Assembly: GCA_019359325.1 (NCBI GenBank)
Contig: JAHHHN010000009.1
Coordinates: 209,162 to 273,161, forward strand
From: Mojavia pulchra JT2-VF2
GTDB taxonomy: Bacteria > Cyanobacteriota > Cyanobacteriia > Cyanobacteriales > Nostocaceae
Length of the DNA: 64,000 nt
Reading direction: 5' to 3'
Part shown: piece after piece, positions 8,668-36,535 of the stretch
Layout: the number at the start of each line of letters is the position of its first letter
How positions within the stretch are numbered: position 1 is the stretch's first letter
Made by a program: the position numbers and the translations under genes
The notes under the pieces: model-generated
Told to the model about the DNA's origin: nothing
Database searches by the model: none
The model's input: only the letters and a program-made list of their open reading frames with translations

Positions 8668-10134
8668 TTATGCTTCAACCTCAAGTACTCCCATCATTCC
8701 TCGGTCTTCATGTTCAGAAATATGACAGTGAAACACAGTTTTACCAATAAAATCACGCAGAGGTACAGCGATTCGGACTTTGGAATGACCAGATAAGTTA
8801 ATATTATCGCGCCATGCCGGGAATGGTTCAGGCCGCCAGGTGCTAGATTTTGCATCTTGCCTTGCAAGTACTTGAAAGGGGTAAGTGTGTAAATGGAATG
8901 GGTGGATTAAGCCGTTATGGTTCTCGATTTCCCAGATTTCCAGGGTATTCAAGCGCCCACGAAAATCTACGCGCTCAGGGTCAAATTGCTTTCCATTGAC
9001 GGTGTAATTAAATGGGATTGCGCCGCCAAACTGTACTGTACGCGTGGTAACTGCCTGTTCTGGGCTGAGTGCATCAACAGAGGCTAAACGTGTAGGCAGT
9101 GGCAATCTTTTAGGTGTAGCTGGAACGACGACTGTGAGCAACGCCTCTTCCTTTGCTGGCTCGCTGCCGACAACAAAGTTTCCATCATCATACGGCAAAT
9201 GTAGCAAATTGAACGTTCCAGCTCGCTTCAACTGAATCAGTACCTCAGCCCGTTCACCTGGTGAAAGGAACAATTCCTCAACGGTAACAGGTTTTTCAAT
9301 GAAGCCGTCGTCAGTAACAATCAAGTGCATCGGGTGTTCTTGGAACTTTAACCGAAACGGACGAGCATTGCTTGTATTCACTAGTCTCAAGCGCAAGAGT
9401 GATTTTTGAGGAACAAGTTTAGGACGATAAGCACCATTCACTAGGCAAAGGTTGCCGTATTTGCCTAGCCAGTCAAAAAAGCTGTGACTAGCAGCAACCT
9501 CACCTCTTAAAATAGTGAAGTCCTTAAGTACAAGCAGATGTTCCTCAGCCGCTTGGAGTTCGGGTATCTCATCGAGTGAACTTTCAATCACAATAGCTCC
9601 AGTCAGTCCGGCGAACTGTTGGGTGGCAACCATACCGTGTGGATGTGGGTGATACCAACGAGTACCTGCTGCCCCTTTGGGTACTGTAAACTCGTGTAAT
9701 CGGCTCTCTCCAGGCATAACATGAACAAAGGGGTTGTCCACTTCTGGTGAGATATGTAACCCGTGCGTGTGCAGATTTGTAGGCACTTCCAAGTGGTTGA
9801 TCAAGCAAAGCCGCACGCGATCGCCCTCCCGTAGCCGAAGCGTTGGCCCTGGAACTGTATCGTTATATGACAGTGCTTGTACTGTGATTCCTGCTAAAGT
9901 AACAGACGTGTGGCTAGCGACAATCTCAGCTTCGACAACACCGGGTTCTGGACGTCGCACACGCAACAATTCTGGTTCGCGTAAAGCAAGTCCAGATTCT
10001 TTTGCCCGCTCTCCAGACTGACCAAACAAAGCATGGTAACCTCCAACAACAGCTATTCCGCCTGTGGTCAGTCCTGCAAGCCGAACAAAGCTGCGGCGAG
10101 TCAGGATAGCTCGTTGGTTTTTAGAGTATGTCAA
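8668..10134 (-). CDS. Multicopper oxidase (laccase/CueO-like), Tat-exported
   Basis: It oxidises phenolic or metal substrates with reduction of O2 to water. A twin-arginine signal is present (TRRSFVRLAGLTTGG). All four copper motifs are intact: HTHGLH, WYHPHPHG, HPFHLHTY and HCHISEHEDRGM; the last includes the T1 Cys and the Met axial ligand. The 488 aa length fits a three-domain enzyme. It lies 50 bases downstream of trpD on the same strand, at the far end of the indole-alkaloid locus. It could be co-transcribed and act on the product outside the membrane. It could equally be an unrelated copper or laccase enzyme. Confidence 0.9.
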   Translation of the reverse strand: MTYSKNQRAILTRRSFVRLAGLTTGGIAVVGGYHALFGQSGERAKESGLALREPELLRVRRPEPGVVEAEIVASHTSVTLAGITVQALSYNDTVPGPTLRLREGDRVRLCLINHLEVPTNLHTHGLHISPEVDNPFVHVMPGESRLHEFTVPKGAAGTRWYHPHPHGMVATQQFAGLTGAIVIESSLDEIPELQAAEEHLLVLKDFTILRGEVAASHSFFDWLGKYGNLCLVNGAYRPKLVPQKSLLRLRLVNTSNARPFRLKFQEHPMHLIVTDDGFIEKPVTVEELFLSPGERAEVLIQLKRAGTFNLLHLPYDDGNFVVGSEPAKEEALLTVVVPATPKRLPLPTRLASVDALSPEQAVTTRTVQFGGAIPFNYTVNGKQFDPERVDFRGRLNTLEIWEIENHNGLIHPFHLHTYPFQVLARQDAKSSTWRPEPFPAWRDNINLSGHSKVRIAVPLRDFIGKTVFHCHISEHEDRGMMGVLEVEA

Positions 10135-10184
10135 TGGTACACCTCTTTCAGCAAGAGTTTAATAGGAATCGAGTTAGTGATTAA

Positions 10185-11339: not shown

Positions 11340-11368
11340 TTGCTTAAAAGTTAATAATTATGCACGGA

Positions 11369-12610
11369 CTAAGGATTAAGGACTTTAGCAACTGTTTGCA
11401 CGTCCTTATCGCCTCTACCAGAGCAGTTGATCACAATTCGTGGGCTGCCATCTAGTTGCGGACATAACTTTTCTAGATAGGCGATCGCATGAGAGGTTTC
11501 TAAAGCAGGAATAATCCCTTCTAATTGAGACAGACGCACAAACGCAGCCAAAGCTTCAGAATCGGTAACGCTGTAATACTCGGCGCGACACGTATCTTTC
11601 AGATAGCTGTGTTCTGGGCCTACCCCAGGATAATCCAAACCTGCACTAATCGAATGTGCTTCGACAATCTGACCATCATCGTCTTGCAATACGTAGCTCA
11701 TTGCACCGTGCAATACCCCGATTCGCCCCTGTGTCAGAGTTGCTGCGTGCTTCTGGGTGTCAACACCTTCACCTGCCGCCTCAACTCCAATTAGGCGTAC
11801 AGATGCTTCACCCACAAACTCATGGAACAGTCCAATCGCATTGGAACCACCCCCCACACAAGCCAAGACAATATCTGGTAGTCCTCCCCACTTCTGTTGA
11901 CACTGAGTACGCGTTTCTTTGCCGATGATAGCGTGGAATTCGCGTACTAACATTGGGTAAGGATGCGGCCCCGCAACGGAACCTAAGATGTAATGTGTTG
12001 AAACCACGTTAGTCACCCAGTCCCGAATAGCCTCGGAAGTGGCATCCTTAAGTGTTCCGCTTCCAGCCTCTACTGGACGCACCTCTGCTCCCATCAGCCG
12101 CATCCGGAATACGTTGAGAGCTTGCCGTTGCATATCGTGGATGCCCATGTAAATCACGCACTGCAATCCAAAACGAGCGCACACAGTTGCTGTCGCTACT
12201 CCATGCTGACCTGCTCCAGTTTCCGCAATGATCCGCTGCTTACCCATGCGCTTTGCCAGCAATACCTGACCTAAAGCGTTGTTGATTTTGTGAGCACCTG
12301 TATGGTTTAAATCCTCCCGCTTTAAGTAAATTTGCGAACCTGTGCCATCAGGTCTAGCGTAGTGTGCTGTCAGGCGTTCAGCAAAATACAAAGGATTAGG
12401 GCGTCCCACATAGTCCCGCAGTAAATTTTGTAACTCTTGTTGAAAGCTTGGGTCATTGCGGTATTGCTCGAATGCTGTTTCTAGCTCGCTTAATGCAGGC
12501 ATTAAGGTTTCAGGGACATACTTACCGCCGAAGCGTCCAAATCTTCCCAAAGAATCAGGGCCGATAAAACCAGGCGCAACATAGGTATTGATATCTGGGA
12601 TGTTTACCAC
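11369..12610 (-). CDS. trpB: Tryptophan synthase beta subunit TrpB
   Basis: It condenses indole with serine through pyridoxal phosphate, the last step to tryptophan. Visible are [16 protein letters not shown] at the N-terminus, the PLP lysine in [23 protein letters not shown], the phosphate loop [10 protein letters not shown], and [13 protein letters not shown]. The 413 aa length is normal. It lies 203 bases downstream of trpA and 29 bases upstream of trpD. In this locus it would feed tryptophan to the halogenase and to the amino acid oxidase. A housekeeping trpB may exist elsewhere. Confidence 0.97.
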
Positions 12611-12813
12611 TGCTTAAAGTCCTTATTGCTAATAGTTAACAAGATGATGCAGGGATGCTATAACGGTTCTTACTCAGATGAATTCCCGCTATATTACACG
12701 GGGATGTAAACAGGGATGTGTCCCCAGCTTTCAAGGGCAGGCATTTTGAGTGACTCTGGCTTCCTTTGCTTGCCATTCGGACAACCTTAAAGTCAAACGA
12801 TATTAGTGATAAT

Positions 12814-13638
12814 TTAAACTGAACCTACCGTTAGAAGAGATGCAGGAGCGATCGCTGCTTTGATTTCTTGGCAAAGTTCTGCAATCGCTTGCAGTCCTGC
12901 ATTTGACTCATCATCTGCTAAACGCTTGACAAAGGCACTACCAACAATTACGGCATCAGCACCCCAATCTTTAACCTGACGAGCCTGTTCTGCTCCAGAG
13001 ATGCCAAAGCCTACGCCAATTGGTTTATTGGTCACATTCCGCATCTCCACCAACAAAGTTTTCACGTGGTCTTGCAACTGGGAGCGCATACCTGTAACGC
13101 CTGTGACACTGACTAGATAAATAAACCCCTGAGAAGACTTAGTAATAGCCTCAATTCTCTGTTTGGAACTTGTAGGAGTTACCAGCAAAATAACTTCTAT
13201 CCCAAATTCGGCTGCTGTATTTATCAGCTCTTCTGCCTCTTCTAAAGGCAAGTCTGGTACTACCAACCCTTGTACCCCAGCGTTGGCAAGTTGTGCTAAA
13301 AATAACCTAATACCCCGATATAAAATTGGATTGTAGTAAGTAAACAAAATCACAGGCGCTTGTAGGCTGGGACTGACATCTGCCACCATCTCCAGTACAG
13401 CTTCTAACTTAGTTCCTTTTTGCAATGCTCTCGTGGCTGCGGCTTGAATCACAGGGCCATCTGCTAACGGATCGGAATAGGGAACACCTAATTCAATAAA
13501 GTCAGCTCCATTGCGATCTAATACTTGTAAAGCCTCTTTTGTGGTTTCTAAGTCAGGGTCTCCAGCTGTTATGAAGGGAATGAGAGCGCACTGGTTGCGA
13601 TTTCTTAAAGATTGGAAGCATTGGGAAATTGAAGTCAT
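12814..13638 (-). CDS. trpA: Tryptophan synthase alpha subunit TrpA
   Basis: It cleaves indole-3-glycerol phosphate and channels indole to TrpB. Motifs are [17 protein letters not shown], the catalytic Glu/Asp pair in [35 protein letters not shown] and [11 protein letters not shown]. The 274 aa length is standard. It lies between trpC and trpB on the same strand; the 130-base gap to trpC contains repeat DNA. Confidence 0.97.
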
Positions 13639-13698
13639 GGGCTTAATCTACCTTATAGGGAAAGAGAAAAGGCTTAACTCAATCATTGCCTTATAAAT

Positions 13699-13715
13699 CA
13701 ATACGGTTCAGTTAA
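13699..13715. repeat. 17-base dispersed motif, copy A
   Basis: CAATACGGTTCAGTTAA occurs here between trpA and trpC and again exactly at 25729-25745 upstream of the O-methyltransferase. The motif resembles an insertion-sequence terminus, so both sites may be scars. No transposase gene is next to either. Confidence 0.5.
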
Positions 13716-13768
13716 TGCAGTAGCTTGGCTACACGAACAAAGCCTGGTTCTGCGAAGCAGTACGCAGG

Positions 13769-14743
13769 CTACAAAACCCTTGATTTTCCGAAGTCCGCCT
13801 GCATGGACTTCGTTTCTTTAGCCGCGACTTCTTGTCGTTCAGGCTTGGTGCTGAGTAGAGTTCGTACAGCTTGCTCTAAATCGGCTTGTTTAACTAATGA
13901 CTCTCCTACCAAAACTGCACGTACACCTGCTTGGGCTACAAGTGATAAATCAGCCGATGTATATAAGCCAGATTCACTCACTATAGTAATGCCGAAGCTT
14001 TGCAACTGTGAACGTCGCAACTCCAAGAGTTGTTGCGTGGTTTTGAGATCCACCGTAAAATCTTCTAAATTGCGATTGTTAATTCCAACTAAACGGATGT
14101 CGTCCAGTTTCAAGACTCGATCTAGTTCAGCCAAGGTATGAACTTCTACCAAAGCTTTCATCCCCAAATCATGGATGACTCGCACAAAGTCTTGGATTTC
14201 TTCATCTGTGAGGATGGCAGCTATCAGCAGTAAAGCATCTGCGCCTGCTACCCGTGCATAGTAGATTTGGTAGATGTCGATCGCAAACTCTTTACACAGT
14301 AGCGGTAATGTCACCTTCTGTCTGATGGCACGCAAGTTGTCAAAACTACCCTGGAAGTACTCAGAGTCAGTGAGAACTGAGAGACAAGCTGCTCCGCCTC
14401 GTTCATAAGCCTGGGCTATAGCCACTGGGTCAAAGTCAGATCGAAGTACTCCGCGAGAAGGGGAGGCTTTCTTGACCTCTGCAATTAAGGTTGGTACATG
14501 AGGACTCTGCTGCAAAGCACTCAGAAAATTTCGTGGCAAAGGAGCAGCAGATAACTGTTGTTGCAAAGAAGCTAGGGGCAATTCTTGCCGCATTTGTGCA
14601 ACTTCTTGCTTTTTATGCCACACAATCTCTTTGAGAATGTGACGCGGATAGAGGTCAGTAGTAGCGACTGAGTAACTCATAAACTGCATAGTACTAGGTT
14701 TCCAAACAACATTGGCATCTGATGGTTCGTCAACAGTATCCAT
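13769..14743 (-). CDS. trpC: Indole-3-glycerol phosphate synthase TrpC
   Basis: Fourth step of tryptophan synthesis: ring closure of CdRP to indole-3-glycerol phosphate. The TIM barrel shows [64 protein letters not shown] and [12 protein letters not shown]. The 324 aa length exceeds the usual 290-300. The extra C-terminal residues are encoded by a hairpin repeat (arms GAAGTCC/GGACTTC at 13790-13811), so the original stop was probably lost to a repeat insertion. The enzymatic core is complete. Confidence 0.95.
13790..13811. repeat. Hairpin repeat at the 3' end of trpC
   Basis: GAAGTCC, an eight-base loop, then GGACTTC. It belongs to a common cyanobacterial interspersed hairpin family and here supplies the last codons of trpC. 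Confidence 0.55.
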
Positions 14744-14838
14744 TGCGACTCACAGCCCTTTTTACTCAAGCAAACTTTGCTAGTGCTTGAGTTGTTGCTT
14801 TTGCTTGAAAAATCTACTGCAAGCTATTTTCAGAAGTC

Positions 14839-15474: not shown

Positions 15475-15649
15475 ACTCGTTTATTTCTGAGCTTGACGCT
15501 GCATAATTTGATCGAGTTGAGGTGATTAATCCTGTTGCCAACCAGTCAGCCCAATCTTTACACAATGAGCTGCACTTGTAAACTGGAGTTTAAGTTTGCT
15601 ACAAGTACGATATTATAGTCTGAGCTTTTTTGAGTAGACCCAGATCAGG

Positions 15650-16318: not shown

Positions 16319-16413
16319 TAGCATTCCTCTGAATAAAATTGAAAATTGAGATTACTTGCGAACCGGAAACTTTTTTGATAGTTGAAAAATTTTCATGGCA
16401 GGAGCAAATGCCA

Positions 16414-17427
16414 TTAAGCTACTGAAATAGTTGCTGGTCTTTCCAGTCGAGAACCCAGTTCTGACAAGTCTGCGAGAACAGTTCTGGCTATGGTGCAATC
16501 AGCTTGAATCTGTGCTTTTAGAGCTTCTAGGGATACAAATTCTTGTTGAGGTCGCAAAAACTTTTCTAGCTGTATAATTAGGGTCTTTCCATATAAATTT
16601 CCAGACCAATCTAACAAGTGTACTTTTACATGTGAACGCTCCCCATTTACTGTCAGGCAATAACCAATATTCATGACGCCTTTGTAGGCAAGAGGCACGG
16701 AGGATTCATCAGTGAGCGCTTTTACTCTCCCACTGTTCCACTCTGTTTCCCTCTCATCTTCAATAAAAACTCTTACAGCATAGACACCGTGTCTTGGCAA
16801 GAGCTTTTCTTTTGGTAACTGGAGATTAGCGGTAGGCAAACCTATGGTTTGACCCATCTGCTCACCTCGAACAACAGAGCCTGTAAGGGTGTAACAACTC
16901 CCTAATAGGGCTTTAGCGCGTTGGAGTTCGCCTTGCTCTATGGCTTTGCGGATGGATGTGCTGCTGATGCGTTCGCCTTCATGAGTGTGTGGAGAAACGA
17001 TAGTAACAGGGATGCCAAAGGTGGCTGCGATCGCTTGCAAATCAACAGCGGTTCCGCTACGCTGATGTCCAAAGCGAAAGTCGTGTCCGACACTAACTTG
17101 TTGGGCTTGCAAATCTTGTACAAGAATTTTTTCGACAAACTGCTGGGGACTTAAAGCTGCTAGTTCTCGATTAAACGGTAGTGACACCATCTGTTTTACC
17201 CCAAATGATCGCAGTTGTTGCACTTTCTCATTCACAGGTGTCAGTAAAGGACAGCGTTTTCCGCTAAAAAACTCACGAGGATGAGGATTGAATGTGACAA
17301 CTGTAGGATAAAAGTTTTGAGAATTCAAAATCGATTCAATTACCTTTTGATGTCCGCGATGCAAACCATCAAAGTTACCAAGAGCAACAGCGGTTGGAGT
17401 TAAAAATGAAGTTAAGCTTCCTAACAT
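16414..17427 (-). CDS. ribF: Bifunctional riboflavin kinase / FMN adenylyltransferase RibF
   Basis: It makes FMN and then FAD from riboflavin. The N-terminal FAD synthetase domain shows ALGNFDGLHRGHQKVI, TFNPHPREFF, VGHDFRFGHQRSG and ISSTSIRKAI. The C-terminal kinase shows GSVVRGEQMGQTIGLPTANL, HGVYAV, MNIGY and VHLLDWSGNLYGK. The 337 aa length is normal. Its place is telling: 109 bases after a flavin-dependent halogenase and in a locus with an FAD oxidase and another flavoprotein. It may be a dedicated cofactor supplier, if the genome also has a housekeeping ribF. That cannot be seen here. Confidence 0.93.
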   Translation of the reverse strand: MLGSLTSFLTPTAVALGNFDGLHRGHQKVIESILNSQNFYPTVVTFNPHPREFFSGKRCPLLTPVNEKVQQLRSFGVKQMVSLPFNRELAALSPQQFVEKILVQDLQAQQVSVGHDFRFGHQRSGTAVDLQAIAATFGIPVTIVSPHTHEGERISSTSIRKAIEQGELQRAKALLGSCYTLTGSVVRGEQMGQTIGLPTANLQLPKEKLLPRHGVYAVRVFIEDERETEWNSGRVKALTDESSVPLAYKGVMNIGYCLTVNGERSHVKVHLLDWSGNLYGKTLIIQLEKFLRPQQEFVSLEALKAQIQADCTIARTVLADLSELGSRLERPATISVA

Positions 17428-24635: not shown

Positions 24636-24645
24636 TGAAAATGCC

Positions 24646-27404: not shown

Positions 27405-27474
27405 CAGTAGTGCTCCTTCCTTAAACAAGCCTTGGAATATAAAACGCAAAGTAGAGAGAATGAAATTTGAAACG

Positions 27475-28794
27475 TTAAGTATGAACTGAAGTTTTCTTGA
27501 AAACGGGCTGTTTTGTTGACGCTAACTGTTCGAGTAGTACAGCAGCTTCAGTAGGTGCGTCGTAACGAGCGATGTCAGCTTTCAAAAGTTGAGCTTTCTG
27601 CCGATAATGGGGTGATGCTAGAATTTTCTGAACAGCATTTTTTAGTTGGGTTGGGTGAGGTTTTTTGGTTTTCAGGTTCACACCCACCCCAGCCCACTCA
27701 ATCCGAGCGCAGATTTCTGGTTTATCCTCAGTTTGACCCGCGGCAACCAGTGGTACACCGTTGGCAAGAGCCATATGTACACCATGAGGCCCACCGTTGG
27801 TCACCATGACATCAACGTGAGGCATGAGATGCTCATGAGGAATAAACTGCTCCAGCCTGACGTTTGTTGGCATCGGATCGATATTAAAACTATCAATCGC
27901 CTTACCACCTGTTGTTGCCACAACGAGTACATCTTCGTCGTTGGCAAACGCCTTGATTGTAGGAACAATTAAATCATCTGCCTCGGTTGATACTGTACCC
28001 TGTGTAACGTGGACAACTACTTTACCACTGTTCAACTCGTCCCACCAACTGGGAGGAGTAAAAGAATTGAGCTGTTCTGGCAATGATGCTCCGATAAAAT
28101 GTACTTGGGGGGGCAAGTCACTACGAGGATACTCAAACGATGGAACCGTCTGCTGTAAATAGAGAAAAGGCGATAAACTAGCATCAAAAAAATTTTGATA
28201 GTCAGGCGATAATCCGATGCTGCCTCGAACTTGGTCTAAATAGACGGTAACATCTTTGAAGAGGAATTGCTGGAACCTGTTCAACCAATAATTACGAAAA
28301 CGTCCGAGTGCTGAAGCGTCTGGTTGCATTCCTAATCCAAAAGGAGCTGTATCGCAACTGCTGAAGAATAGCCCAGTTGTACCTAAAGTTGCCCAAGGCG
28401 GCCCTCCTTTTTTATGAACCCAAGAGGCTCCCAAGAAAAACAAATCGGATAAAACAACATCAGCTGGGAACTTTTGCAATATTTCGGTAAGGTCTTTTAA
28501 CTGCGCTGCTGCTGAGTCAACAAAAAGGTGCTTGAGGCAGAACTTAAACTGTGCCAGTCCCTTTAAAGAAAACCCTTCTTCTTTTAAAGATTCAGGGATA
28601 GTGTCTGGTACAGTGAAATCAATGCCTGTACGGATGGGAACGTGGCGAGCGCCAGTCTGTTCCACCTGAGATTGAAAACCAATCCCTGTATACCACCACA
28701 CTTGGTGACCGCGCTCTACTAGCTTACGAGCAATGGGCAAGGCTGGGTTGACGTGTCCAAAAGCGGGGATCGTACCTATAAGAAAACGAGCCAT
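27475..28794 (-). CDS. GT1-family glycosyltransferase (MGT/UGT-like)
   Basis: It transfers a sugar from a nucleotide donor to a small lipophilic acceptor. The N-terminal Rossmann half starts FLIGTIPAFGHVNPALPIARKLVERGHQVWWYTG. The C-terminal donor-binding region includes VVVHVTQGTVSTE, RLEQFIPHEHLMPHVDVMVTNGGPHGVHMALANGVPLV, and GQTEDKPEICARIEWAGVG, with the family His-Gly-Gly-type signature. The 439 aa length is normal. It is located between the flavoprotein and P450 genes, as RebG-type N-glycosyltransferases are in indolocarbazole loci. No sugar-biosynthesis genes are in the window, so a common sugar such as glucose or xylose would be supplied by the cell. Confidence 0.9.
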   Translation of the reverse strand: MARFLIGTIPAFGHVNPALPIARKLVERGHQVWWYTGIGFQSQVEQTGARHVPIRTGIDFTVPDTIPESLKEEGFSLKGLAQFKFCLKHLFVDSAAAQLKDLTEILQKFPADVVLSDLFFLGASWVHKKGGPPWATLGTTGLFFSSCDTAPFGLGMQPDASALGRFRNYWLNRFQQFLFKDVTVYLDQVRGSIGLSPDYQNFFDASLSPFLYLQQTVPSFEYPRSDLPPQVHFIGASLPEQLNSFTPPSWWDELNSGKVVVHVTQGTVSTEADDLIVPTIKAFANDEDVLVVATTGGKAIDSFNIDPMPTNVRLEQFIPHEHLMPHVDVMVTNGGPHGVHMALANGVPLVAAGQTEDKPEICARIEWAGVGVNLKTKKPHPTQLKNAVQKILASPHYRQKAQLLKADIARYDAPTEAAVLLEQLASTKQPVFKKTSVHT

Positions 28795-28933: not shown

Positions 28934-28980
28934 TCCTGATGAGAATGGGTTTCACCACCTTAAAAAGACTATTGGGCTAC

Positions 28981-30165
28981 CTAAATAATTGGAGTGTTAT
29001 GTGGTAATCCCAGCTGTAGCTTGCCATAGACTTCGTTAGCACCATCAAAATCGAGCATAATATGGGAATAAATCATGGCAATATCTCGTGCAAAACGCTG
29101 TAATTCTTCAGTTAAATAATGCGATCGCGATCCCATCACATCTAGGACTTCATTGATAATCGACTTACATTCTTTCACCGCTAATGTACACTGCACCCTG
29201 TATTTGGCTCTGTCATTCAAGGTCAAGGATGCTGTTTCAGTTTTGAGCATCATATCCTTAATACTGTCTTGCATTAACAGTTCCATTGTTTCCAACCTGA
29301 CCATGATATCTGATAGTCTGACAAGAGCTGTTTGTCTGACCTCTACATTCTTGTCTAAAAAACTGTGCAGTTTATCTTTGTAAATCTGGATGACTCTTTT
29401 GGCTGCACCAATAGCCGGAGCCGTTCCTGATAAAGCAGTAACCGGTGCAACGCACCATTGGAAATTAGTACTCTTTAAAACTTTAGAACCTGGAGAATTA
29501 CCGTTTAGCAGATCGATGAGATTTGCTACTCTGTACTCAGGAACGAATACCTCATTTATTTGAATATCGTTGCTGCCGGTTCCTTTCATTCCTGAAACAT
29601 ACCAAGTATCTAATATTTCCACTTCTTTTTGTGGAAGTAGAAAAACTTTTGGTACAGGCTTCTCATCTGTGGAATTAGGTAAATACATACCTCCAACAAT
29701 TACCCAAGAGTCATGTTTAACTCCAGTAATAAAAGGCCACCTTCCACTAAGAGTATATCCATCCTGTGTTTTGATTGCTTTGCCTTTGGGACTAAAAGTG
29801 GCAGAAACTAAATTGTAATTATTATCTGCAAAAACTTCTTTTTGAGCTTCCCAAGGAAATAATCCTACCATCCAGTTGTGTACCGACACCAAGCAGGTGA
29901 CCCAAGCTGTGGAAACACATCCCTGTGCAATATAATCGCAAACATCAAACACAACATCCAAAGGCATTTCATGTCCACCGAACTCTGAGGGAGTCATCGC
30001 GCTGAAAAAGCCTGCTTCACAAAGCTTTTTCACAATTTCGTCCGAAATATTTCCTCGTTTTTCAGTTTCGATCGCTACTTTAGCAACTTCGTCTCTTATT
30101 TGTCGTGCGTTTTCGATAATTTCTTCTCTGGTTAACTTCTTGATATTTACAACAACCATTTTCAA
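28981..30165 (-). CDS. Acyl-CoA dehydrogenase-fold flavin monooxygenase (group D)
   Basis: A 394-residue protein of the acyl-CoA dehydrogenase fold, of the hydroxylase type (HsaA, C2-HpaH, indole oxygenase IifC). Visible are an N-terminal helical domain (RQIRDEVAKVAIETEKRGNI), a central beta region with SGRWPFITGVKHDSWVIVGG and SGMKGTGSNDIQ, and the C-terminal helical bundle ending DGANEVYGKLQLG. The acyl-CoA dehydrogenase catalytic Glu is not evident. Such enzymes take reduced FMN or FAD from a separate reductase and hydroxylate aromatics; none is encoded nearby. It follows the VioB C-part by 36 bases. It may do the ring oxidation that VioC/VioD do in violacein synthesis. This is inference. 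Confidence 0.8.
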   Translation of the reverse strand: MKMVVVNIKKLTREEIIENARQIRDEVAKVAIETEKRGNISDEIVKKLCEAGFFSAMTPSEFGGHEMPLDVVFDVCDYIAQGCVSTAWVTCLVSVHNWMVGLFPWEAQKEVFADNNYNLVSATFSPKGKAIKTQDGYTLSGRWPFITGVKHDSWVIVGGMYLPNSTDEKPVPKVFLLPQKEVEILDTWYVSGMKGTGSNDIQINEVFVPEYRVANLIDLLNGNSPGSKVLKSTNFQWCVAPVTALSGTAPAIGAAKRVIQIYKDKLHSFLDKNVEVRQTALVRLSDIMVRLETMELLMQDSIKDMMLKTETASLTLNDRAKYRVQCTLAVKECKSIINEVLDVMGSRSHYLTEELQRFARDIAMIYSHIMLDFDGANEVYGKLQLGLPHNTPII

Positions 30166-30201
30166 CTCCTATTTTTAGGGCGATCGCTAAGTACGTTTCG
30201 T

Positions 30202-31446
30202 TCAATCAATATTCTGAGTAAAGCCGATAAAAAACTGCAATAACTCCTGAATCGTATCTGGAACAACCTTTAATTTTTGAGCCTTTGCATAAAGCTTTTC
30301 AAACTTATAAACGAGTAGCTTTTGTGCTGTTTTATCGTAGGGTATGTACTGGATAGGTTGTGACAACTCAAAAGAAGGGCCAGCAGTTCTCCCTGGTATT
30401 CCTGATTCCAAAGTCATCAACAAAATTGCCAGTGGACGCAGCAATACAGCCATAATTTCTAAGGAAGTATTCATTAATCTAGACATCCTCAGAGACTCTG
30501 TAGGTCTTTTCCCAAAATGCTGAACCATCATTTGCATACTGATTTCAAAGCAGCCATTAAAAATCTGCATTACTTCGGCAGTTTCTTCATTCAGTACCTG
30601 ATTAGTCCCAGGTCTACGAGCAATGCTAGGATTTCTTAATGTTGGATAAGCATGAAACCAATCACCTTGTAAATTAAATTCCTGTAGGTAGTGATGAATT
30701 TTTTGAAATTTGTGAAAGTGCGAATCCTCAAACACCTCGACCTGTGCATTGGCTCCTTCACCTTGTTCGGTAATTAGGTCGATAGTAAATAAAGCTGAAT
30801 CTAAATCATCTACCTGACATTGATAATTCGGGTGATGTGTGTTCGTCTTTTTATTTAAAAATAGATGATGTTCACCTCCAGTCTTATTCTTCTCAACCAA
30901 AATTAATTCAGGATTATTTACTAAAGCTATCCTGATTTTCTGATAAAGTTGACTAACGCTACTATAAGTCGTTTTCCCATTATTGCTGTGTCCTGGAACT
31001 GTTCTGTCTTGATAATAAGAGGGCCATTCAAAGTAGATAAATCGTTTTACACAGTTCTCAGAGAATGGCTCAAGTGCCATTTCTACACCAAGAGGGTAAA
31101 ATTTTGACAGCTTTGAAAAGTCAGGTGTGCAAGTGTGAAAAGAACCGCCTACAGCCATTAAAAGGTTATTAGCCATCAGGAAGTGTATCATTTCTTCCCT
31201 AGCAATCCGAAGGATAACACCTCGGATACCCTGGTTCATTCTTTCTTCACCGTCACCACACATGAATTTCAAGTGTTCTGGCTTCCAGATACCCCGCTTT
31301 ACGTATTCCTGTCCACTCACTAGATTAGGTATGGAATAAGCAGCATAGAGATACTGAAGCATCAAAGACATTTCTAATTCCACTGCATCTTTAAGAGCAA
31401 CTATTATCTCTTCAGCAGTGGTGATTTCTTCTTTAATCTCAATCAT
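30202..31446 (-). CDS. vioB: VioB/RebD-type imine-dimer synthase, C-terminal ferritin-like part
   Basis: A 414-residue protein that aligns by eye with the C-terminal third of VioB (Chromobacterium) and RebD. It has the helical ferritin-like start (KDAVELEMSLMLQYLYAAYSIPN), REEMIHFLMANNLLMAVGG with the ExxH-type motif, LEPFSENCVKRF, GGEHHLFLN, ITEQGEGA, and MTLESGIPGRTAGP. In known homologues this domain is fused to the N-terminal part. Here its ATG overlaps the stop of the upstream ORF (ATGATTGA), which shifts the frame by +1. AAGG lies nine bases before the ATG, which suggests coupled translation of two subunits that together rebuild the enzyme. Confidence 0.88.
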   Translation of the reverse strand: MIEIKEEITTAEEIIVALKDAVELEMSLMLQYLYAAYSIPNLVSGQEYVKRGIWKPEHLKFMCGDGEERMNQGIRGVILRIAREEMIHFLMANNLLMAVGGSFHTCTPDFSKLSKFYPLGVEMALEPFSENCVKRFIYFEWPSYYQDRTVPGHSNNGKTTYSSVSQLYQKIRIALVNNPELILVEKNKTGGEHHLFLNKKTNTHHPNYQCQVDDLDSALFTIDLITEQGEGANAQVEVFEDSHFHKFQKIHHYLQEFNLQGDWFHAYPTLRNPSIARRPGTNQVLNEETAEVMQIFNGCFEISMQMMVQHFGKRPTESLRMSRLMNTSLEIMAVLLRPLAILLMTLESGIPGRTAGPSFELSQPIQYIPYDKTAQKLLVYKFEKLYAKAQKLKVVPDTIQELLQFFIGFTQNID

Positions 31447-33499
31447 CTTTTACAGCCTTTTTGTGACAACAAGGCAGATAACCGATTTGCGAAACATTCA
31501 TCAAGAACTTTTTAAAAAGCAAAGCTTTAGGATAAGATAACTCCCTGGTAGGAGGCATGTAATAGGATTTATCTCTGTTGATAGGATCGCACATCTGCCA
31601 GGATAGTAAAGAGAAAGATTCTACTCTGGCTTTGTTGCCAAGACTAAAGATTTCGCGATTCATAAAAGGATAGAGCAGTTCATAAAATTGCAGAACATGC
31701 TCGTACATTAACTTAAAGTCTACGTCAGACTGTGGAACATCTATTAAATGCCAGTCATGAGGTAGCACTTTGATATGTATAACATTCGCCTTGTTCCAAA
31801 AATTCAGTTGGTTACTGTCATCATAAACCTCAAAAGGATCATGCTCCAACAAGGTCTGAATAAATTGATTTTCGCTTTCTCCAACTGCAAAAATAATTCG
31901 CCCTCCGCCACTTTTCAGCCCTCGAAATGTGATTGTCGCCCTACCTTTTTCATTAGTACTAAACTCTAACTCTGTCTGAAAATGACTGCTGTTTTCTACA
32001 TACTTACATTTGACAAGGCATAGTTTGTGTTCTTTACTATCCGGTAAATTCTCCTGTTTAAATTCTTCAACTTTAAAGGGAAAATTAGCCGGATTATAAA
32101 CTTGGTGTAAATGGATATTATTGACGGTGTGCGGCATCCCTCTGATAAAACTTCGGATTTCGATGCTCTCATCGAAAAATATTCCTTTTTCCTCAGAAGG
32201 AATTTCAAGGTAAATGTTGGCTCGATCTGCTTGAATGATAATCTCTTTTTCTTGCAATATTGGGATAAAGTTTCCTTGGTTGTCTTGGATAGCGATAAAC
32301 AAAGAACTTTGAAAAATTTGTTCCCAATGTTCGTCGCTAAGTTTAATTAAGTATTCAAAATCAAAAATCCCCGATGTCTGGTAATAAAAATGCTTTTGCA
32401 AATTTTTAACAGAGATAAAGGTTAAAGGATCTTCGATACCTTGGCAAAAAAGGAATAAGTCGTGCGGACTATAGAACTCTCCATGCTCAGGAAGAGGCCC
32501 ACTTGAGTGTGATGGTGGCCTTCCATCAATAGGAAGTGCGATTGGCATGTTTAAGCTCAAGTGTCCTTGGAAAAGTTCAACCGAAAGAGTACCCCAACCT
32601 TCCACAAGGTTCTGACTGGCTACATCCTGTAATGGGTGAAGCACCCTTCCTGCCGGATAAGTAGCCATTTCTCGCTCCCCATACCATATCCCTACAGTAC
32701 CGACTAAACTGTACCAAGTTGGTGTATTGGGTTGAATTGGTTCACTAGCATTGAACAAACAGTATTGGACAACAATGCCTTTCGCCGCCTCATGTTTTAG
32801 AGTTTCTTGAAAAGCTACTAATGCATCAGAATCTAACTCATCACTATTTAAATAGAAATGCTCTTGGTCTTTTTCCAGCACGAACTGATAGACCGCAGCC
32901 TTGTTAATCTCTTCATCATTCCAGTGTTGAGGAAAATTGATGATGTGATTATTTTTATGCCACCGGGCGTGGTGAACTTTCTGGACACCACCATTGATTA
33001 AGTGATTAGAACTGATAGAAGCTTCTCGGCCTAAGGTAAAATGCCCTGCATAAATCTGTCTAGTCCACTGGGAGGCAGAATCTAGTTCTACTACTTTTGG
33101 TTGGTTAAAGGTGGTAGCTAGATACTCATTGTAGTGTCCCCATAAATCAACCGCTCTACCAACCAAAGGGTCATCAGTGTTTATGACTCCAAATCTGGTT
33201 TGTGTGCTTACCACTTTGGCATTCCACGAAACCCTGCTATTCCCTTCTAAATCACGACCAGCAGCTTCGCTAAATATGCCTTCTGGGTCTTCTTGACCTT
33301 CACGGTTGTATTTTATTCCCAGATGAGAGTAGTACTCGTAAAAAGCTTCTGGAGCTACAGAGGAGTCAACTCGTTTCTGACCCATGTAGATTTCGTTAGT
33401 TGTTAAGTCAATATTTCCAGCCTTATTCTGGTTTCCGGTAGGCTCGTGAAAACGACACCACCCTGAAAAATGAATTCTCGGAAAATTTAAAATACTCAT
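31439..33499 (-). CDS. vioB: VioB/RebD-type imine-dimer synthase, N-terminal part
   Basis: The enzyme oxidatively couples two indole-3-pyruvate imines to the dimer that is the branch point to chromopyrrolic acid or, with VioE, to protodeoxyviolaceinic acid. The 686-residue product starts MSILNFPRIHFSGW, as VioB does, and continues AVDLWGHYNEYLATTFNQP, QIYAGHFTLGREA, VQYCLFNASEPIQPN, YPAGRVLHP, and CDPINRDKSYYMP-TRELS-PKA near its end. It ends precisely in the inter-domain linker of VioB. GAGGGAA precedes the start at 33499, 13 bases after the vioE stop; the frame opens at 33568 but that part is not conserved. VioB and RebD bind heme; the ligand is not identified here. Confidence 0.9.
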   Translation of the reverse strand: MSILNFPRIHFSGWCRFHEPTGNQNKAGNIDLTTNEIYMGQKRVDSSVAPEAFYEYYSHLGIKYNREGQEDPEGIFSEAAGRDLEGNSRVSWNAKVVSTQTRFGVINTDDPLVGRAVDLWGHYNEYLATTFNQPKVVELDSASQWTRQIYAGHFTLGREASISSNHLINGGVQKVHHARWHKNNHIINFPQHWNDEEINKAAVYQFVLEKDQEHFYLNSDELDSDALVAFQETLKHEAAKGIVVQYCLFNASEPIQPNTPTWYSLVGTVGIWYGEREMATYPAGRVLHPLQDVASQNLVEGWGTLSVELFQGHLSLNMPIALPIDGRPPSHSSGPLPEHGEFYSPHDLFLFCQGIEDPLTFISVKNLQKHFYYQTSGIFDFEYLIKLSDEHWEQIFQSSLFIAIQDNQGNFIPILQEKEIIIQADRANIYLEIPSEEKGIFFDESIEIRSFIRGMPHTVNNIHLHQVYNPANFPFKVEEFKQENLPDSKEHKLCLVKCKYVENSSHFQTELEFSTNEKGRATITFRGLKSGGGRIIFAVGESENQFIQTLLEHDPFEVYDDSNQLNFWNKANVIHIKVLPHDWHLIDVPQSDVDFKLMYEHVLQFYELLYPFMNREIFSLGNKARVESFSLLSWQMCDPINRDKSYYMPPTRELSYPKALLFKKFLMNVSQIGYLPCCHKKAVKDD

Positions 33500-33512
33500 G
33501 AGGAAAATTCCC

Positions 33513-34100
33513 TCAATACTTAAAAACTTTTTGGTCAATTTGCTCAGTTGAAGGATTGGGTAAATCACGAATTAGCATTTGCCCGTTCTTGAACTGTTGC
33601 ATCCTCACCAATTCATTGCTGCCTTTCTTCAGATAGAAGCGATGCATATTAAAGGAATTGTCCCGATCAAATTCCCAGCAATCGACTTCTATTCCTAATA
33701 TCTGTTCAGTTCCTTTGAAGGTGGCTTTTCCAGTAATCAAAATGTCCCTTGGAACAATTGAGTTGTTAGCCTTAACTTCCTGAGCTTCAAGTTCAGCAAC
33801 GTCATAGCTAAATGCTTCAGTTACGTCATCCTCTTGTTTAATGTGATAAGGAAGCTTGTAAACAAGGCTCTTGCCCTGACCGTAAAAAGTGACTTCTGAC
33901 ATCCATAACTGATAGCCCGTCTTTTCAACATCCCAAGGATTAAAAATACCGTCTATTCTATAGACTTCCGATTCGTAGTCGAACCAGACAGACCCTGAAG
34001 AAATAAAATTTCCTTGTTTCATCGGTGACCAGTAAGTGATGTACGCTGAACTCCATTGAACTGGTAACAAAGGTGGCTGAAAGTTATGATTTTTATTCAT
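33513..34100 (-). CDS. vioE: VioE homologue (imine dimer to protodeoxyviolaceinic acid)
   Basis: VioE intercepts the VioB imine dimer and causes the 1,2-indole shift that commits it to the violacein scaffold. The 195 aa product (VioE is 191) shows the diagnostic block PPLLPVQWSSAYITYWSPM, WFDYES-VYRIDGIFNPW, TGYQLWMSEV, IVPRDIL and LIRDLPNPS. By my recollection of VioE numbering, residues implicated in catalysis align as Tyr17 to Tyr20, Ser19 to Thr22, Phe50/Asn51 to Phe53/Asn54, Glu66 to Glu69 and Arg172 to Arg178; only Ser19 differs. The start at 34100 has AAAGGAG, placed inside the 3' end of the methyltransferase one base upstream. VioE is rare and pathway-specific, so this gene defines the locus. 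Confidence 0.92.
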   Translation of the reverse strand: MNKNHNFQPPLLPVQWSSAYITYWSPMKQGNFISSGSVWFDYESEVYRIDGIFNPWDVEKTGYQLWMSEVTFYGQGKSLVYKLPYHIKQEDDVTEAFSYDVAELEAQEVKANNSIVPRDILITGKATFKGTEQILGIEVDCWEFDRDNSFNMHRFYLKKGSNELVRMQQFKNGQMLIRDLPNPSTEQIDQKVFKY

Positions 34101-34101
34101 A

Positions 34102-34956
34102 TCACTTAACTCCTTTGACAACAATATTTTTTGCTGGTATGGACACAAAATAACCATCGTAGTATTTTGCTACATTCCGATGAATTTCTTCATGAATTTG
34201 ATTAGCTGTTTCCTCTGGAATATTGGCGAAGATTGAATCCATCTGAGGAGACATACTCCTGATAAAATTCCAGAAAGTCACAGGTGTACCTTGCCAACGC
34301 CAGTGGATTTCGGCGTAGTCCCACTGAAGATTTAAGAAACCTACACTTTTAAGTAATCGGGCAAAGTCTAAAGCAGTAATCAAATTAAAATCTGTTGAAG
34401 CTTTGTCTACATTTTTTGTTGCTGTGTGCTTTGTCAATACATCTAGGTAAACATTTTTGATTTCGCCATGTGCTTCTTCACCCCAATCAACAACGACAAT
34501 CTCGCCACCTTTTTTTAATACTCTATAGGCTTCCTGGAGTTGTCTAATCTTTAAATCATTAGTCAAATATTGCATCCCAAAACGACAGCAGGCAGCATCA
34601 AAACTTTCATTTTTAAAGGGCAAATCTAGAGAATTACCTAGCTTTACTGATATGTTTTTGAGATTTTTGCTGGTAGCGCGCTTTTCTAGTTCTTCAATAA
34701 ATCGGGAAACGAAGTCAAGACCTACTATCTCACCCTTTTCACCTACTAATGTTGTTAATGATAAAGTGGGATCACCTGGGCCACAGCCAATATCTAGAAC
34801 TTTTTTTGCTTCCAAATCAGAAAAAGTAGAAATGATGAGGTCTGTTGACTCTTTTGTCCAAGCGTCTACCAAATCGATATTTTCGCAAAGTGACGGGGCT
34901 AGTTCCACCCATCTGTCGTACAAGCGTTGAACTGCTGGAATTTCTGTGCTAACCAT
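34102..34956 (-). CDS. Class I SAM-dependent methyltransferase (UbiE-like fold)
   Basis: A 284-residue enzyme. SAM motif I is VLDIGCGPGDPTLSL (about 53-67), followed by VGLDFVSRFIEELEKRA, FDAACCRFGMQYL and LKKGGEIVVVDWG. The start at 34956 follows AGGAG; the longer frame to 35025 is less likely. It lies between the amino acid oxidase gene (62-base gap) and vioE (one base), inside the core operon, so it probably acts on an early intermediate or on the bis-indole scaffold. No known violacein locus carries a methyltransferase here. The acceptor atom is unknown. Confidence 0.85.
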   Translation of the reverse strand: MVSTEIPAVQRLYDRWVELAPSLCENIDLVDAWTKESTDLIISTFSDLEAKKVLDIGCGPGDPTLSLTTLVGEKGEIVGLDFVSRFIEELEKRATSKNLKNISVKLGNSLDLPFKNESFDAACCRFGMQYLTNDLKIRQLQEAYRVLKKGGEIVVVDWGEEAHGEIKNVYLDVLTKHTATKNVDKASTDFNLITALDFARLLKSVGFLNLQWDYAEIHWRWQGTPVTFWNFIRSMSPQMDSIFANIPEETANQIHEEIHRNVAKYYDGYFVSIPAKNIVVKGVK

Positions 34957-35017
34957 AATCTTCAACTCCTGAAATATTAGTATCAAATTTAGTTGTTTTT
35001 GTAAGAAACAGTCAGGT

Positions 35018-36535
35018 TTACACAACTGAAGGTTCTAACAATATTGTTCTAGTCTGAAGTTGAACAATTTCTTCTACCTGGCTCAGGGCAGATGTAATTG
35101 CCCCTTCTATCCAGGCGTTATCCATCGAACAATGTTCGCCTGCAAAATACAGCTTTTTTTCCGGTTTGGTGACGGCTTCAACATTGTATTTCGATCTACC
35201 AAGCCACATCACACCACTACATCCACGAGTCCATTTGTGCTTTTCCCATGAAATAACAGCAACATCTTGAACCATATCTTCAGTTTCAATCTCTGGATGA
35301 AATCTGCTGACGCTTCTTTTAATCAGATTGATCTGTTCATGATGACTAAGTTCGGCAAGATATGTGGAATCTTCACCAATTACGTAACTAGCAAGTAAAA
35401 CACCAGGATTTTCTTGCTTAAAAGAGGAATTATCTTGGGATGCAAGAGGATAATATAATTGGCGAATTACCCGATCGCTTACGGAAGCTCCTTCTTTAAT
35501 TTGATATTTGTCTTTTTCCCAGAATCTGTCTTTGCAATAGAACAGTACTTTAGTAGCACCAACATAAGTGAGGTTGTGAATGACATCTAGCTTTTCCTTT
35601 GAAAAGCCATCTAACTTAATTTCTCTCAAAACGCTAAATGGTATGGTGCATAATACAGTATCGCTGTATAATTGCTCATTGCCATTAATAGTAATTTTGA
35701 CCTTATTGTCCTCAAGGCTGATCCCCGTAACCTCTGCATTCAATCTGATGTCATCTTTTAAATGATTAGCGATCGCATCAGGAAGCTGGTTCATACCCCC
35801 GGCAAGTTGATAAAGGTCGCTAGAGGATTCGAGGATAATATGCCGCATATAAGTTCTTAGCACATCTTCACATCTACCTCTCAATTTGGAGAGCAGCGGC
35901 AATACATTGTTAGGGGAAAATTCCTCATCATTCAGTTCAATAGAACAGCGCTCAAGTGAATAATCTAATTCATCTAATAAATAGTTATGCAAATCTGTTT
36001 CAAACAGTTCGCGTATCTCTTTAGGAGACATAGCATCCACTATTGTTTTGAGTGCAGATGCAAACCGTTCGGTATATTTGGATTTGAACTTTCTGTTTTT
36101 AGAAAATTCATAGCTGGGATAAATCTCGTTGATAACATCTTTTAATCGACATACTTTTCCCTTTATATCAAGGAAGCATTCATTATTCTTAAAAATAGTT
36201 ACAAACTTCTTCAACTGAGACTGTAACCCCATTTCATTGATATAGTAATGAGTGAATTCGTGATTGAAAGGAAGGCGCATAGCACCAAGCTCTCCATATG
36301 CCGTTATATTTTCATCATCAAATCTATAAGTCCATATTCTTCCTCCAATTCGGTTGCTTGCTTCTAATATTTTGACTTCGTAGTTAAGCTTTTTTAGTTC
36401 ATAAGCAGCAACCAGACCGGAAATTCCTGCACCTAAAATAGTTATTGATTTAGGTAAACTGTTTGGGTTGAGAGAATTTATTTTTGAAAAATATCCTCTG
36501 ACCTTTTTAAAATCTCTGTTTAAAACCTTTTCCAT
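35018..36535 (-). CDS. FAD-dependent L-amino-acid oxidase (RebO/VioA/StaO type)
   Basis: It oxidises L-tryptophan, or here perhaps halotryptophan, to the indole-3-pyruvate imine and H2O2, the substrate of the VioB-type enzyme. The 505 aa product has the dinucleotide motif ITILGAGISGLVAAYEL (31-47), LEASNRIGGR (57-66), the substrate-binding motif GELGAMRLP with Arg87, and the C-terminal FAD segment LYFAGEHCSMDNAWIEGAITSA. It is longer than VioA (about 420) and, with GAMR, looks more like RebO and classic L-amino-acid oxidases than VioA itself. As the first gene of the minus-strand series it probably follows the main promoter, in or near 36.5-36.9 kb. Confidence 0.85.
   Translation of the reverse strand: MEKVLNRDFKKVRGYFSKINSLNPNSLPKSITILGAGISGLVAAYELKKLNYEVKILEASNRIGGRIWTYRFDDENITAYGELGAMRLPFNHEFTHYYINEMGLQSQLKKFVTIFKNNECFLDIKGKVCRLKDVINEIYPSYEFSKNRKFKSKYTERFASALKTIVDAMSPKEIRELFETDLHNYLLDELDYSLERCSIELNDEEFSPNNVLPLLSKLRGRCEDVLRTYMRHIILESSSDLYQLAGGMNQLPDAIANHLKDDIRLNAEVTGISLEDNKVKITINGNEQLYSDTVLCTIPFSVLREIKLDGFSKEKLDVIHNLTYVGATKVLFYCKDRFWEKDKYQIKEGASVSDRVIRQLYYPLASQDNSSFKQENPGVLLASYVIGEDSTYLAELSHHEQINLIKRSVSRFHPEIETEDMVQDVAVISWEKHKWTRGCSGVMWLGRSKYNVEAVTKPEKKLYFAGEHCSMDNAWIEGAITSALSQVEEIVQLQTRTILLEPSVV

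What the first reader, a model, noticed from the sequence alone, without database searches (positions are those of the whole stretch)
8668..36535. A violacein-type bis-indole locus with halogenase, glycosyltransferase and methyltransferases in a cyanobacterium
Read directly: RebO/VioA-type oxidase, VioE homologue, VioB/RebD-type synthase (two ORFs), tryptophan halogenase, GT1 glycosyltransferase, P450, group D flavoprotein, three methyltransferases and a full set of tryptophan genes, all on one strand over 28 kb. Known: VioA, VioB and VioE make protodeoxyviolaceinic acid. Inference: the product is a halogenated, glycosylated and methylated relative of violacein. I know of no described cyanobacterial pathway of this type; characterised violacein producers are mainly proteobacteria.
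Basis: partly seen in the sequence, partly recalled or inferred. Interest (0 to 1): 0.93.

Follow-up and report, generated by a model that had tools for sequence, protein, structure and literature searches.

The report
Cyanobacterial violacein-type cluster, deeply branching
A cyanobacterium related to Nostoc carries a cluster of about twenty genes, including a deeply branching relative of the violacein enzyme VioE, a VioB enzyme coded as two genes, and halogenase, sugar-transfer and methyl-transfer genes, which would likely make a chlorinated, sugar-bearing relative of the purple pigment violacein.

Summary
At 8,668-36,535 (- strand), 21 ORFs taken as genes run one way: a tryptophan-oxidase-type flavoprotein (VioA position), VioE, VioB in two genes, a group-D flavin hydroxylase, GT1, P450, three methyltransferases, DAHP synthase, TrpEG, a PrnA-like halogenase, RibF, trpC/A/B/D (no trpF seen) and three others. 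The VioE call is firm: PF18234 170 bits; the predicted fold's 13 best PDB matches are all VioE.
New here: (1) This VioE lies in a 13-row clade (100/100) apart from 111 VioEs that include other cyanobacterial ones. (2) VioB is two genes, split before the ferritin-like domain, in all three genomes found with this type. (3) Nostoc XA010 has the same cluster. Calothrix NIES-4105 has the same core, halogenase and GT1, plus VioC and VioD; no other VioB or VioE was found there, so this core very likely makes the VioD/VioC substrate. (4) The window genome has no VioD and no close VioC; a group-D hydroxylase, P450 and methyltransferases are there instead. (5) Six other genomes of the family carry canonical VioE and one-piece VioB.
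The product is inferred; halogenation timing, sugar and oxidation pattern are untested. New variant of a known kind.

The parts
35018..36535 (-). VioA position: flavin L-amino-acid/tryptophan-oxidase type (LAAO/RebO-like) enzyme, 505 aa
   Evidence: Pfam Amino_oxidase 214 bits; best PDB hits L-amino-acid oxidases; NCBIfam VioA only 45.9 bits; 70% to the NIES-4105 homologue beside its VioE
34102..35025 (-). Methyltransferase 1 (UbiE/Methyltransf_25 type)
   Evidence: present in XA010, no homologue between NIES-4105 TrpEG and GT1
33513..34157 (-). VioE of the deep clade; likely start ATG at 34100
   Evidence: PF18234 170 bits, TIGR03650 165.2 bits; PDB 2zf3 1.3e-33; tree and residues; model pLDDT 85.5, 13 best PDB fold hits all VioE
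31439..33568 (-). VioB N-terminal half (dimer synthase), own gene; likely start ATG at 33499
   Evidence: TIGR04492 488.5 bits, best stretch positions 1-454; tree; model pLDDT 85.3, pTM 0.88; start checked
30202..31446 (-). VioB C-terminal half (ferritin-like domain), own gene; its ATG overlaps the end of the N-half gene by 8 nt
   Evidence: TIGR04492 positions 598-987, 397.8 bits; PF12902 135.8 bits; junction; 86 of 101 columns invariant in 8 one-piece relatives kept
28981..30165 (-). Group-D (HsaA/HPAH-C2/XiaF-type) two-component flavin hydroxylase, oxygenase part
27475..28794 (-). GT1 glycosyltransferase
   Evidence: 60% homologue next to the halogenase in NIES-4105
26061..27449 (-). Cytochrome P450 (best PDB match 3dbg)
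24646..25695 (-). O-methyltransferase 2 (Methyltransf_2 with dimerisation domain)
22905..24008 (-). Methyltransferase 3 (Methyltransf_23 in C-terminal half)
21716..22825 (-). DAHP synthase
   Evidence: NF009933 649.8 bits; Pfam DAHP_synth_1 290 bits
19312..21603 (-). TrpEG fused anthranilate synthase; the second fused copy of the genome lies on contig C19 with ScyA
   Evidence: TIGR01815 1189.5 bits
17537..19156 (-). PrnA/RebH-family tryptophan halogenase
   Evidence: 81% homologue in the NIES-4105 cluster
16414..17427 (-). RibF (riboflavin kinase/FAD synthetase); a second copy is elsewhere in the genome
15650..16324 (-). ABM-domain protein, role unknown
   Evidence: PF03992 66 bits
14839..15474 (-). 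ORF with no family match; 95% identical in XA010
13769..14743 (-). TrpC
12814..13638 (-). TrpA
11369..12610 (-). TrpB, one of three full-length copies of over 85% identity in the genome
10185..11339 (-). TrpD
8668..10134 (-). Multicopper oxidase, last gene of the order shared with XA010; role in the pathway unknown

Best explanation
The locus is a violacein-type bis-indole cluster with a two-gene VioB and a deep-branching VioE, and it would likely make a chlorinated, glycosylated and methylated relative of (deoxy)violacein. Proposed steps: the cluster's own DAHP synthase, TrpEG, TrpC/A/B/D and RibF would supply tryptophan and FAD (inferred from extra gene copies). The VioA-position oxidase would turn L-tryptophan into the indole-pyruvate imine, the two VioB subunits together would couple two of these, and VioE would shift one indole ring to give a protodeoxyviolaceinic-acid-type core (inferred by homology and from the NIES-4105 hybrid cluster). 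The PrnA-like halogenase would chlorinate tryptophan or the bis-indole. The genome has no VioD hit and no close VioC (shown); the group-D hydroxylase and the P450 are predicted to do the ring oxidations instead, after which the methyltransferases and GT1 would decorate the new oxygens or the indole nitrogen.
For: Gene content and order shown, repeated in Nostoc XA010. VioE: positions Cv Y17, F50, N51, E66 and R172 kept in the window (roles recalled), fold VioE. Both VioB halves are encoded in all 3 genomes of this type found, and the C half keeps 86 of 101 columns invariant in 8 one-piece VioB/RebD-type proteins, with 86 of 101 in NIES-4105 and 84 of 101 in XA010. Key genetic argument: NIES-4105 has one VioE hit and only the split VioB, yet full-length VioC (735 bits, cut-off 760) and VioD (616, cut-off 620) in the same cluster, so the deep-clade VioE and split VioB very likely feed VioD/VioC. 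The halogenase and GT1 lie just upstream of VioA there. Tryptophan/DAHP genes also accompany vio genes in NIES-4105 and in G550, and the window copies are extra to those on the ScyA contig. Precedent: violacein analogues were made in E. coli by feeding tryptophan analogues or by adding the tryptophan 7-halogenase RebH, and 7-chloroviolacein was purified from one extract (PMC7179595, passages). XiaF, recalled to hydroxylate indole, is among the hydroxylase's solved homologues.
Against: No chemistry was measured. VioE is 36-41% identical to 8 non-cyanobacterial VioEs and falls under the TIGR03650 equivalog cut-off. S19 is T in 12 of 12 readable rows of its clade, and Y17 is F in 4 of those 12, though not in the window. 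The halogenase has N and G at PrnA Y444 and E450, positions recalled to hold the amino-acid part of tryptophan, so free tryptophan may not be its substrate. No flavin reductase was recognised among the locus ORFs scanned; NIES-4105 has one (FMN_red). An IS4/5-type transposase fragment lies 5' of the VioA gene, so expression is uncertain. The VioE-like MarE comes from a cluster I recall as making a bisindolylmaleimide, a warning that a VioE-like gene need not mean a violacein core.
Confidence: 0.62

Rival explanations
1. The VioE homologue does not make the violacein skeleton; the pathway runs through chromopyrrolic acid to a chlorinated glycosylated indolocarbazole or bisindolylmaleimide, like rebeccamycin or the tjipanazoles.
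For: The halogenase + GT1 + P450 + methyltransferase set resembles that of rebeccamycin-type clusters (recalled), tjipanazoles are halogenated bis-indoles of cyanobacteria (PMC8065813, passages), and a VioE-like MarE exists.
Against: PMC5577590 (passages) states that chromopyrrolic acid forms in pathways lacking a VioE homologue; VioE is kept in all 3 genomes of this type and in NIES-4105 stands with VioC and VioD. The P450's best NCBIfam match is the albaflavenone monooxygenase model (322 bits, under its cut-off of 700); no StaP was named in the 60 of 536 PDB hits shown, which does not exclude it. RebC was not searched for by name.
Confidence: 0.17
2. The halogenase acts late, on the assembled bis-indole, rather than on free tryptophan; otherwise the pathway is as in the best explanation.
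For: PrnA Y444 and E450 are N and G in all 3 halogenases of this type, while K79, E346, H101, F103, F454 and W455 are kept (residue roles recalled).
Against: The closest solved relatives, PrnA and RebH, are named tryptophan halogenases and Y443 is kept.
Confidence: 0.35
3. Two unrelated loci abut: a vio half (22.9-36.5 kb) and a tryptophan/halogenase half (8.7-22.8 kb) with its own product.
For: Gaps of 365 and 637 nt separate P450, OMT2 and MT3; GC is 40.1% in the right half and 44.7% in the left.
Against: In NIES-4105 halogenase and GT1 lie directly upstream of VioA-VioE-VioB, and TrpEG and DAHP synthase are in the same stretch; XA010 keeps the whole order.
Confidence: 0.08
4. The cluster is silent or decaying and makes nothing.
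For: IS4/5-type fragment between VioA and the next operon, IS200/605 pair at the left edge.
Against: The 21 ORFs have full-length counterparts in XA010, and the IS fragment is shared with XA010 (85%), so the genes have stayed open since it arrived.
Confidence: 0.1

Closest known systems
Violacein pathway VioABCDE (Chromobacterium, Janthinobacterium)
   Same: VioB-type dimer synthase and VioE, an amino-acid oxidase before them
   Different: VioB in two genes, VioE in a separate clade, no VioD hit and no close VioC in the genome, oxidase of the LAAO/RebO type, added halogenase, GT1, P450, group-D hydroxylase, three methyltransferases
Canonical-type vio genes in other cyanobacteria of the family (G540, G475, G550 and, without VioC/VioD, G413, G414, G434)
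   Same: VioE family, VioB family, LAAO-type oxidase (seen in five of six; the 12 kb read of G475 shows none); G550 also has DAHP synthase and trp genes beside them
   Different: VioE inside the canonical clade, VioB one piece, VioC and VioD in three of six, and no halogenase or GT1 match shown in the stretches read, 9 to 40 kb each
Calothrix sp. NIES-4105 vio cluster
   Same: Split VioB, deep-clade VioE, VioA, halogenase, GT1, TrpEG, DAHP synthase
   Different: Has VioC, VioD, a second VioA, an FMN reductase and its own exporters; no homologue of the group-D hydroxylase or P450 in the 60 kb read. Homologues of the three methyltransferases are absent from the cluster, but two other methyltransferase ORFs lie 1-3 kb beyond TrpEG
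Rebeccamycin / tjipanazole indolocarbazole clusters
   Same: Tryptophan halogenase, RebO/RebD-like pair and glycosyltransferase logic (recalled for rebeccamycin; tjipanazoles as a class)
   Different: Recalled to lack VioE; the tjipanazole gene-cluster paper was not held
Scytonemin cluster
   Same: Tryptophan genes beside the pathway; a ScyA-related enzyme lies 2 kb away
   Different: The ScyA that passes the curated cut-off is on contig C19 with another TrpEG and TrpB

Membership tests
Violacein pathway (VioABCDE) | VioE | tested here: met
   PF18234 170 bits over cut-off 25; TIGR03650 165.2 under its cut-off 177.05; 13 best fold hits all VioE
Violacein pathway (VioABCDE) | VioB dimer synthase | tested here: met
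   Both halves match TIGR04492 (398 and 489 bits). The cut-off of 1250 is not reached by either, nor by the one-piece G550 VioB at 984
Violacein pathway (VioABCDE) | VioA proper | tested here: not met
   45.9 bits against cut-off 600; LAAO-type enzyme in its place
Violacein pathway (VioABCDE) | VioD | tested here: not met
   no hit in the window genome; the query's own genome and 3 of the 8 others searched have it
Violacein pathway (VioABCDE) | VioC | tested here: not met
   best hit 43 bits, 27% identity, on another contig; the query's own genome and 3 of the 8 others (76-78%) have a copy
Violacein pathway (VioABCDE) | Product with 1,2-shifted indole | not testable with these tools
   needs enzymology or LC-MS
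Indolocarbazole (rebeccamycin/staurosporine) | StaP/RebP P450 | tested here: inconclusive
   no StaP named among the 60 of 536 PDB hits shown
Indolocarbazole (rebeccamycin/staurosporine) | No VioE homologue | tested here: not met
   VioE present; criterion from PMC5577590 passage
PrnA/RebH tryptophan halogenases | Catalytic K79 and E346 (PrnA numbering, roles recalled), flavin and WxWxI motifs | tested here: met
PrnA/RebH tryptophan halogenases | Residues holding the amino acid of free tryptophan (recalled) | tested here: inconclusive
   Y443 and F454 kept, Y444 to N and E450 to G
Tjipanazole cluster (tjp) | tjp gene set | not tested
   paper not held

The most novel reading that the evidence does not exclude
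This is a second, anciently separated branch of violacein-type chemistry, built on a two-subunit VioB and a VioE subfamily marked by T19, which nature has combined with a tryptophan halogenase, a glycosyltransferase and either VioC/VioD (Calothrix) or a group-D hydroxylase, P450 and methyltransferases (Nostoc) to make naturally chlorinated violacein glycosides, a compound class so far known to me only from engineered bacteria and enzyme reactions.
Probability: 0.45. Interest if true: 0.8.

Novelty: new variant of a known kind. Interest (0 to 1): 0.64.

Why it matters
Violacein analogues have been made on purpose in E. coli by feeding tryptophan analogues or adding RebH, and purified 7-chloroviolacein was at least equipotent to violacein against malaria parasites (PMC7179595, passages). 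Violacein glycosides are known as enzymatic products (a reference title seen in PMC9705886). If this locus does what it looks like, cyanobacteria make both changes at once. It would also give a two-subunit VioB, useful because no solved relative of either half was found by sequence, a VioE clade that can test which residues drive the poorly understood ring shift, and a natural gene swap (NIES-4105) showing how pathway halves are exchanged.

Tried and rejected
Frameshift as the cause of the split VioB: rejected, because XA010 has the same 8-nt overlap of the two ORFs (junction letters read in the window only), the two-gene form is also in NIES-4105 at 65-69% identity, and the N half is modelled well except for residues 1-24, 502-510 and 697-709.

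VioE as a chance or unrelated match: rejected. VioC/VioD hidden elsewhere in the genome: rejected for VioD, and for any close VioC.

Led nowhere: fold search of the VioB N half gave no meaningful match (query-normalised TM at most 0.15 among the 50 rows shown). No PDB sequence match for either VioB half. Rfam at gathering thresholds and the tRNA scan of the window were empty. VioE in plasmid records: none. TrpEG and TrpB identities do not separate vio copies from other copies; in that call the contig-C19 TrpB row was a wrong frame and is dropped (one search gives 87%). Tree rows dropped: P0055 (485 aa, too short) from the VioB tree; the second G550 VioB (C66) was not fetched. G748, a VioE hit in another family of the order, was not examined further.

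The P450, group-D enzyme, GT1 and methyltransferases were not followed by homologue searches beyond the family and PDB scans.
Full report
WHAT IS THERE. The window lies in an 8.2 Mb genome (85 contigs) that has PSII reaction-centre genes, so the host is a cyanobacterium. Its proteins across the locus are 83-96% identical to those of Nostoc sp. XA010. From 8668 to 36535 I count 21 ORFs on the - strand as genes, setting aside shorter nested or overlapping ORFs. In transcription order: VioA-position flavoprotein, methyltransferase 1, VioE, VioB N half, VioB C half, group-D hydroxylase, GT1, P450, O-methyltransferase 2, methyltransferase 3, DAHP synthase, TrpEG, halogenase, RibF, an ABM-domain protein, an unknown ORF, TrpC, TrpA, TrpB, TrpD, multicopper oxidase. 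TrpF was not among the hits.

VioE. The protein passes Pfam PF18234 (170 bits, cut-off 25), falls a little short of the NCBIfam equivalog cut-off (165.2 against 177.05) and matches solved VioE at 1.3e-33. Its AlphaFold model (mean pLDDT 85.5) has VioE chains as its 13 best PDB matches, followed by ependymin-related and LolA proteins, fold relatives already reported for VioE (reference title, abstract of PMC6608618). Positions Y17, F50, N51, E66 and R172 of C. violaceum VioE are kept in the window; their importance is recalled, as the paper was not held.

A SEPARATE VioE CLADE. A profile search found 117 VioE proteins. The other 111 rows include proteobacterial and myxobacterial VioEs and seven that come from cyanobacteria (G413, G414, G434, G475, G540, Stigonema, Anabaena azotica). 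The clade carries T at position 19 in 12 of 12 readable rows, against S in 109 of 109 readable others; positions 55 (V or I against E) and 162 (Q against T, S and others) also separate them. Y17 is F in 4 of the 12 readable rows of the clade, not in the window. The tree program warns of long branches meeting here (a 4-row subgroup), so the inner order of the clade is unsure. The window VioE is 36-41% identical to 8 non-cyanobacterial VioEs, while the 7 canonical cyanobacterial ones are 43-62% identical to the same 8.

TWO-GENE VioB. The N half matches VioB model positions from 1 on and the C half 598-987. The break lies in the linker before the ferritin-like domain: one-piece VioBs run on through the same place. 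The C half keeps 86 of the 101 columns that are invariant in 8 one-piece VioB/RebD-type proteins (XA010 84, NIES-4105 86), among them EEM.H, GEH and EQGEG. The genes overlap by 8 nt (ATGATTGA) in the window, and the XA010 ORFs overlap by 8 nt too; NIES-4105 is also split. The N half alone models well (mean pLDDT 85.3, pTM 0.88) but has no meaningful PDB fold match.

RELATIVES. VioE occurs in 1 of 386 genomes drawn from the phylum, 9 of 217 of the family and 2 of 388 drawn from the order; the draws overlap and each counts the window's own genome. Of the nine in the family, three are of the window's type: the window, XA010 (G386, also drawn as G507) and NIES-4105 (G387, also drawn as G436). Six (G413, G414, G434, G475, G540, G550) have canonical VioE (280-340 bits) and one-piece VioB. 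Three of these six, G475, G540 and G550, have VioC and VioD; in G413, G414 and G434 no VioD and no close VioC was found, so lack of VioC/VioD is not peculiar to the window.

THE KEY COMPARISON. Calothrix NIES-4105 has, in one stretch: TrpEG, DAHP synthase, an FMN reductase, a second VioA, VioD, VioC, MFS and ABC exporters, VioB C and N halves, VioE, VioA, halogenase, GT1; TrpC/A/B/D lie about 12 kb beyond GT1 on the other strand, and two methyltransferase ORFs lie 1-3 kb beyond TrpEG. Its VioC (735 bits, cut-off 760) and VioD (616, cut-off 620) are nearly at the curated cut-offs. The genome has one VioE hit and only the split VioB. Since VioD and VioC act after VioE (PMC5577590, passages; PMC9705886, passages), the split VioB and deep-clade VioE very likely make the violacein precursor. 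This is an inference from gene content. The window genome, by contrast, has no VioD hit and no close VioC; a group-D hydroxylase, P450 and three methyltransferases are in the cluster, and of the two relatives read only XA010 shares them.

TAILORING. The halogenase is 53% identical to PrnA and keeps K79, H101, F103, E346, F454 and W455, but has N and G at Y444 and E450 in all three copies. With recalled roles of these residues, chlorination at or near position 7 is likely, and free tryptophan as substrate is in doubt. The hydroxylase is related to HsaA, HPAH-C2 and XiaF, the P450 best to the albaflavenone monooxygenase model and PDB 3dbg, GT1 to CalG1 and macrolide glycosyltransferases, methyltransferase 2 to small-molecule O-methyltransferases. 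Substrates are inferred.

SUPPLY GENES. TrpB has three full copies in the genome (100, 87 and 86%) and fused TrpEG two; the other TrpEG and one TrpB are on contig C19, which also carries the ScyA that passes the cut-off (1112 bits), so that set probably belongs to scytonemin. RibF has a second copy on C3, 60% identical. Extra copies inside the cluster fit a dedicated supply of tryptophan and FAD. NIES-4105 and G550 also keep trp genes near vio genes; in G540 none was seen in the 40 kb read. Sequence identities do not show that the vio-linked trp copies share an origin.

WHAT IS KNOWN. NCBI already names VioE in XA010, Anabaena azotica and Stigonema ocellatum. Literature searches (listings read, not the papers, except as cited) showed no described cyanobacterial violacein-type pathway; the library lacks most subscription journals. 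A 2021 violacein review has no word beginning cyanobacteri- in its main text. Violacein analogues were made in E. coli by feeding or with RebH, and 7-chloroviolacein was purified (PMC7179595, passages). Tjipanazoles are halogenated cyanobacterial bis-indoles (PMC8065813, passages); their gene-cluster paper was not held.

VERDICT. Real locus, violacein-type core well supported, decorations plausible, product unmeasured. New variant of a known kind.

Noticed in passing
L024+L025 (G540), gene table: VioD and VioE are fused in one 571-aa ORF, and the VioE part has Q at the C. violaceum E66 position (1 of 123 readable rows).
   Followed up: partly
L026 (G475) and L024+L025 (G540): Beside canonical vio genes lie a cytochrome-b5-domain ORF and a type III polyketide synthase (chalcone/stilbene synthase domains 92 and 79 bits in G475; the G540 pair judged by eye from its likeness to it). 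An acylated or polyketide-modified violacein is possible.
   Followed up: partly
L027+L028 (G413), L033 (G414), L031+L032 (G434), L024+L025 (G540): In G413, G414 and G434 a VioA-type oxidase and VioE adjoin while no VioD and no close VioC is found in the genome; in G413, G414 and G540 VioB lies far away or on another contig.
   Followed up: partly
window 38742-43967 (+): ScyA-related TPP enzyme (1043 bits, cut-off 1000), KAS III-type enzyme and two SDRs, also next to the cluster in XA010; one of four ScyA-like genes of over 900 bits in the genome. Could use the same indole-pyruvate.
   Followed up: partly
window 36587-36895 and 6828-8595: IS4/5-type transposase fragment between VioA and the divergent operon, shared with XA010; IS200/605 pair at the left edge, where synteny with XA010 ends.
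   Followed up: partly
window 51546-54681 (+): DevB/DevA-type ABC exporter, related (33-60%) to the exporter inside the NIES-4105 vio cluster but 15 kb from this one.
   Followed up: no
protein P0014: Aetokthonos hydrillicola has a one-piece VioB (1120 aa) that groups with the canonical cyanobacterial ones.
   Followed up: no
L060 (G748): A VioE of 318 bits in another family of the order, in an 82% complete genome of 610 contigs.
   Followed up: no
window 47478-51014 (-) and 44412-47111 (+): WD40-repeat protein and a PA14/Calx-beta/GSDH protein, apparently unrelated to the cluster.
   Followed up: no
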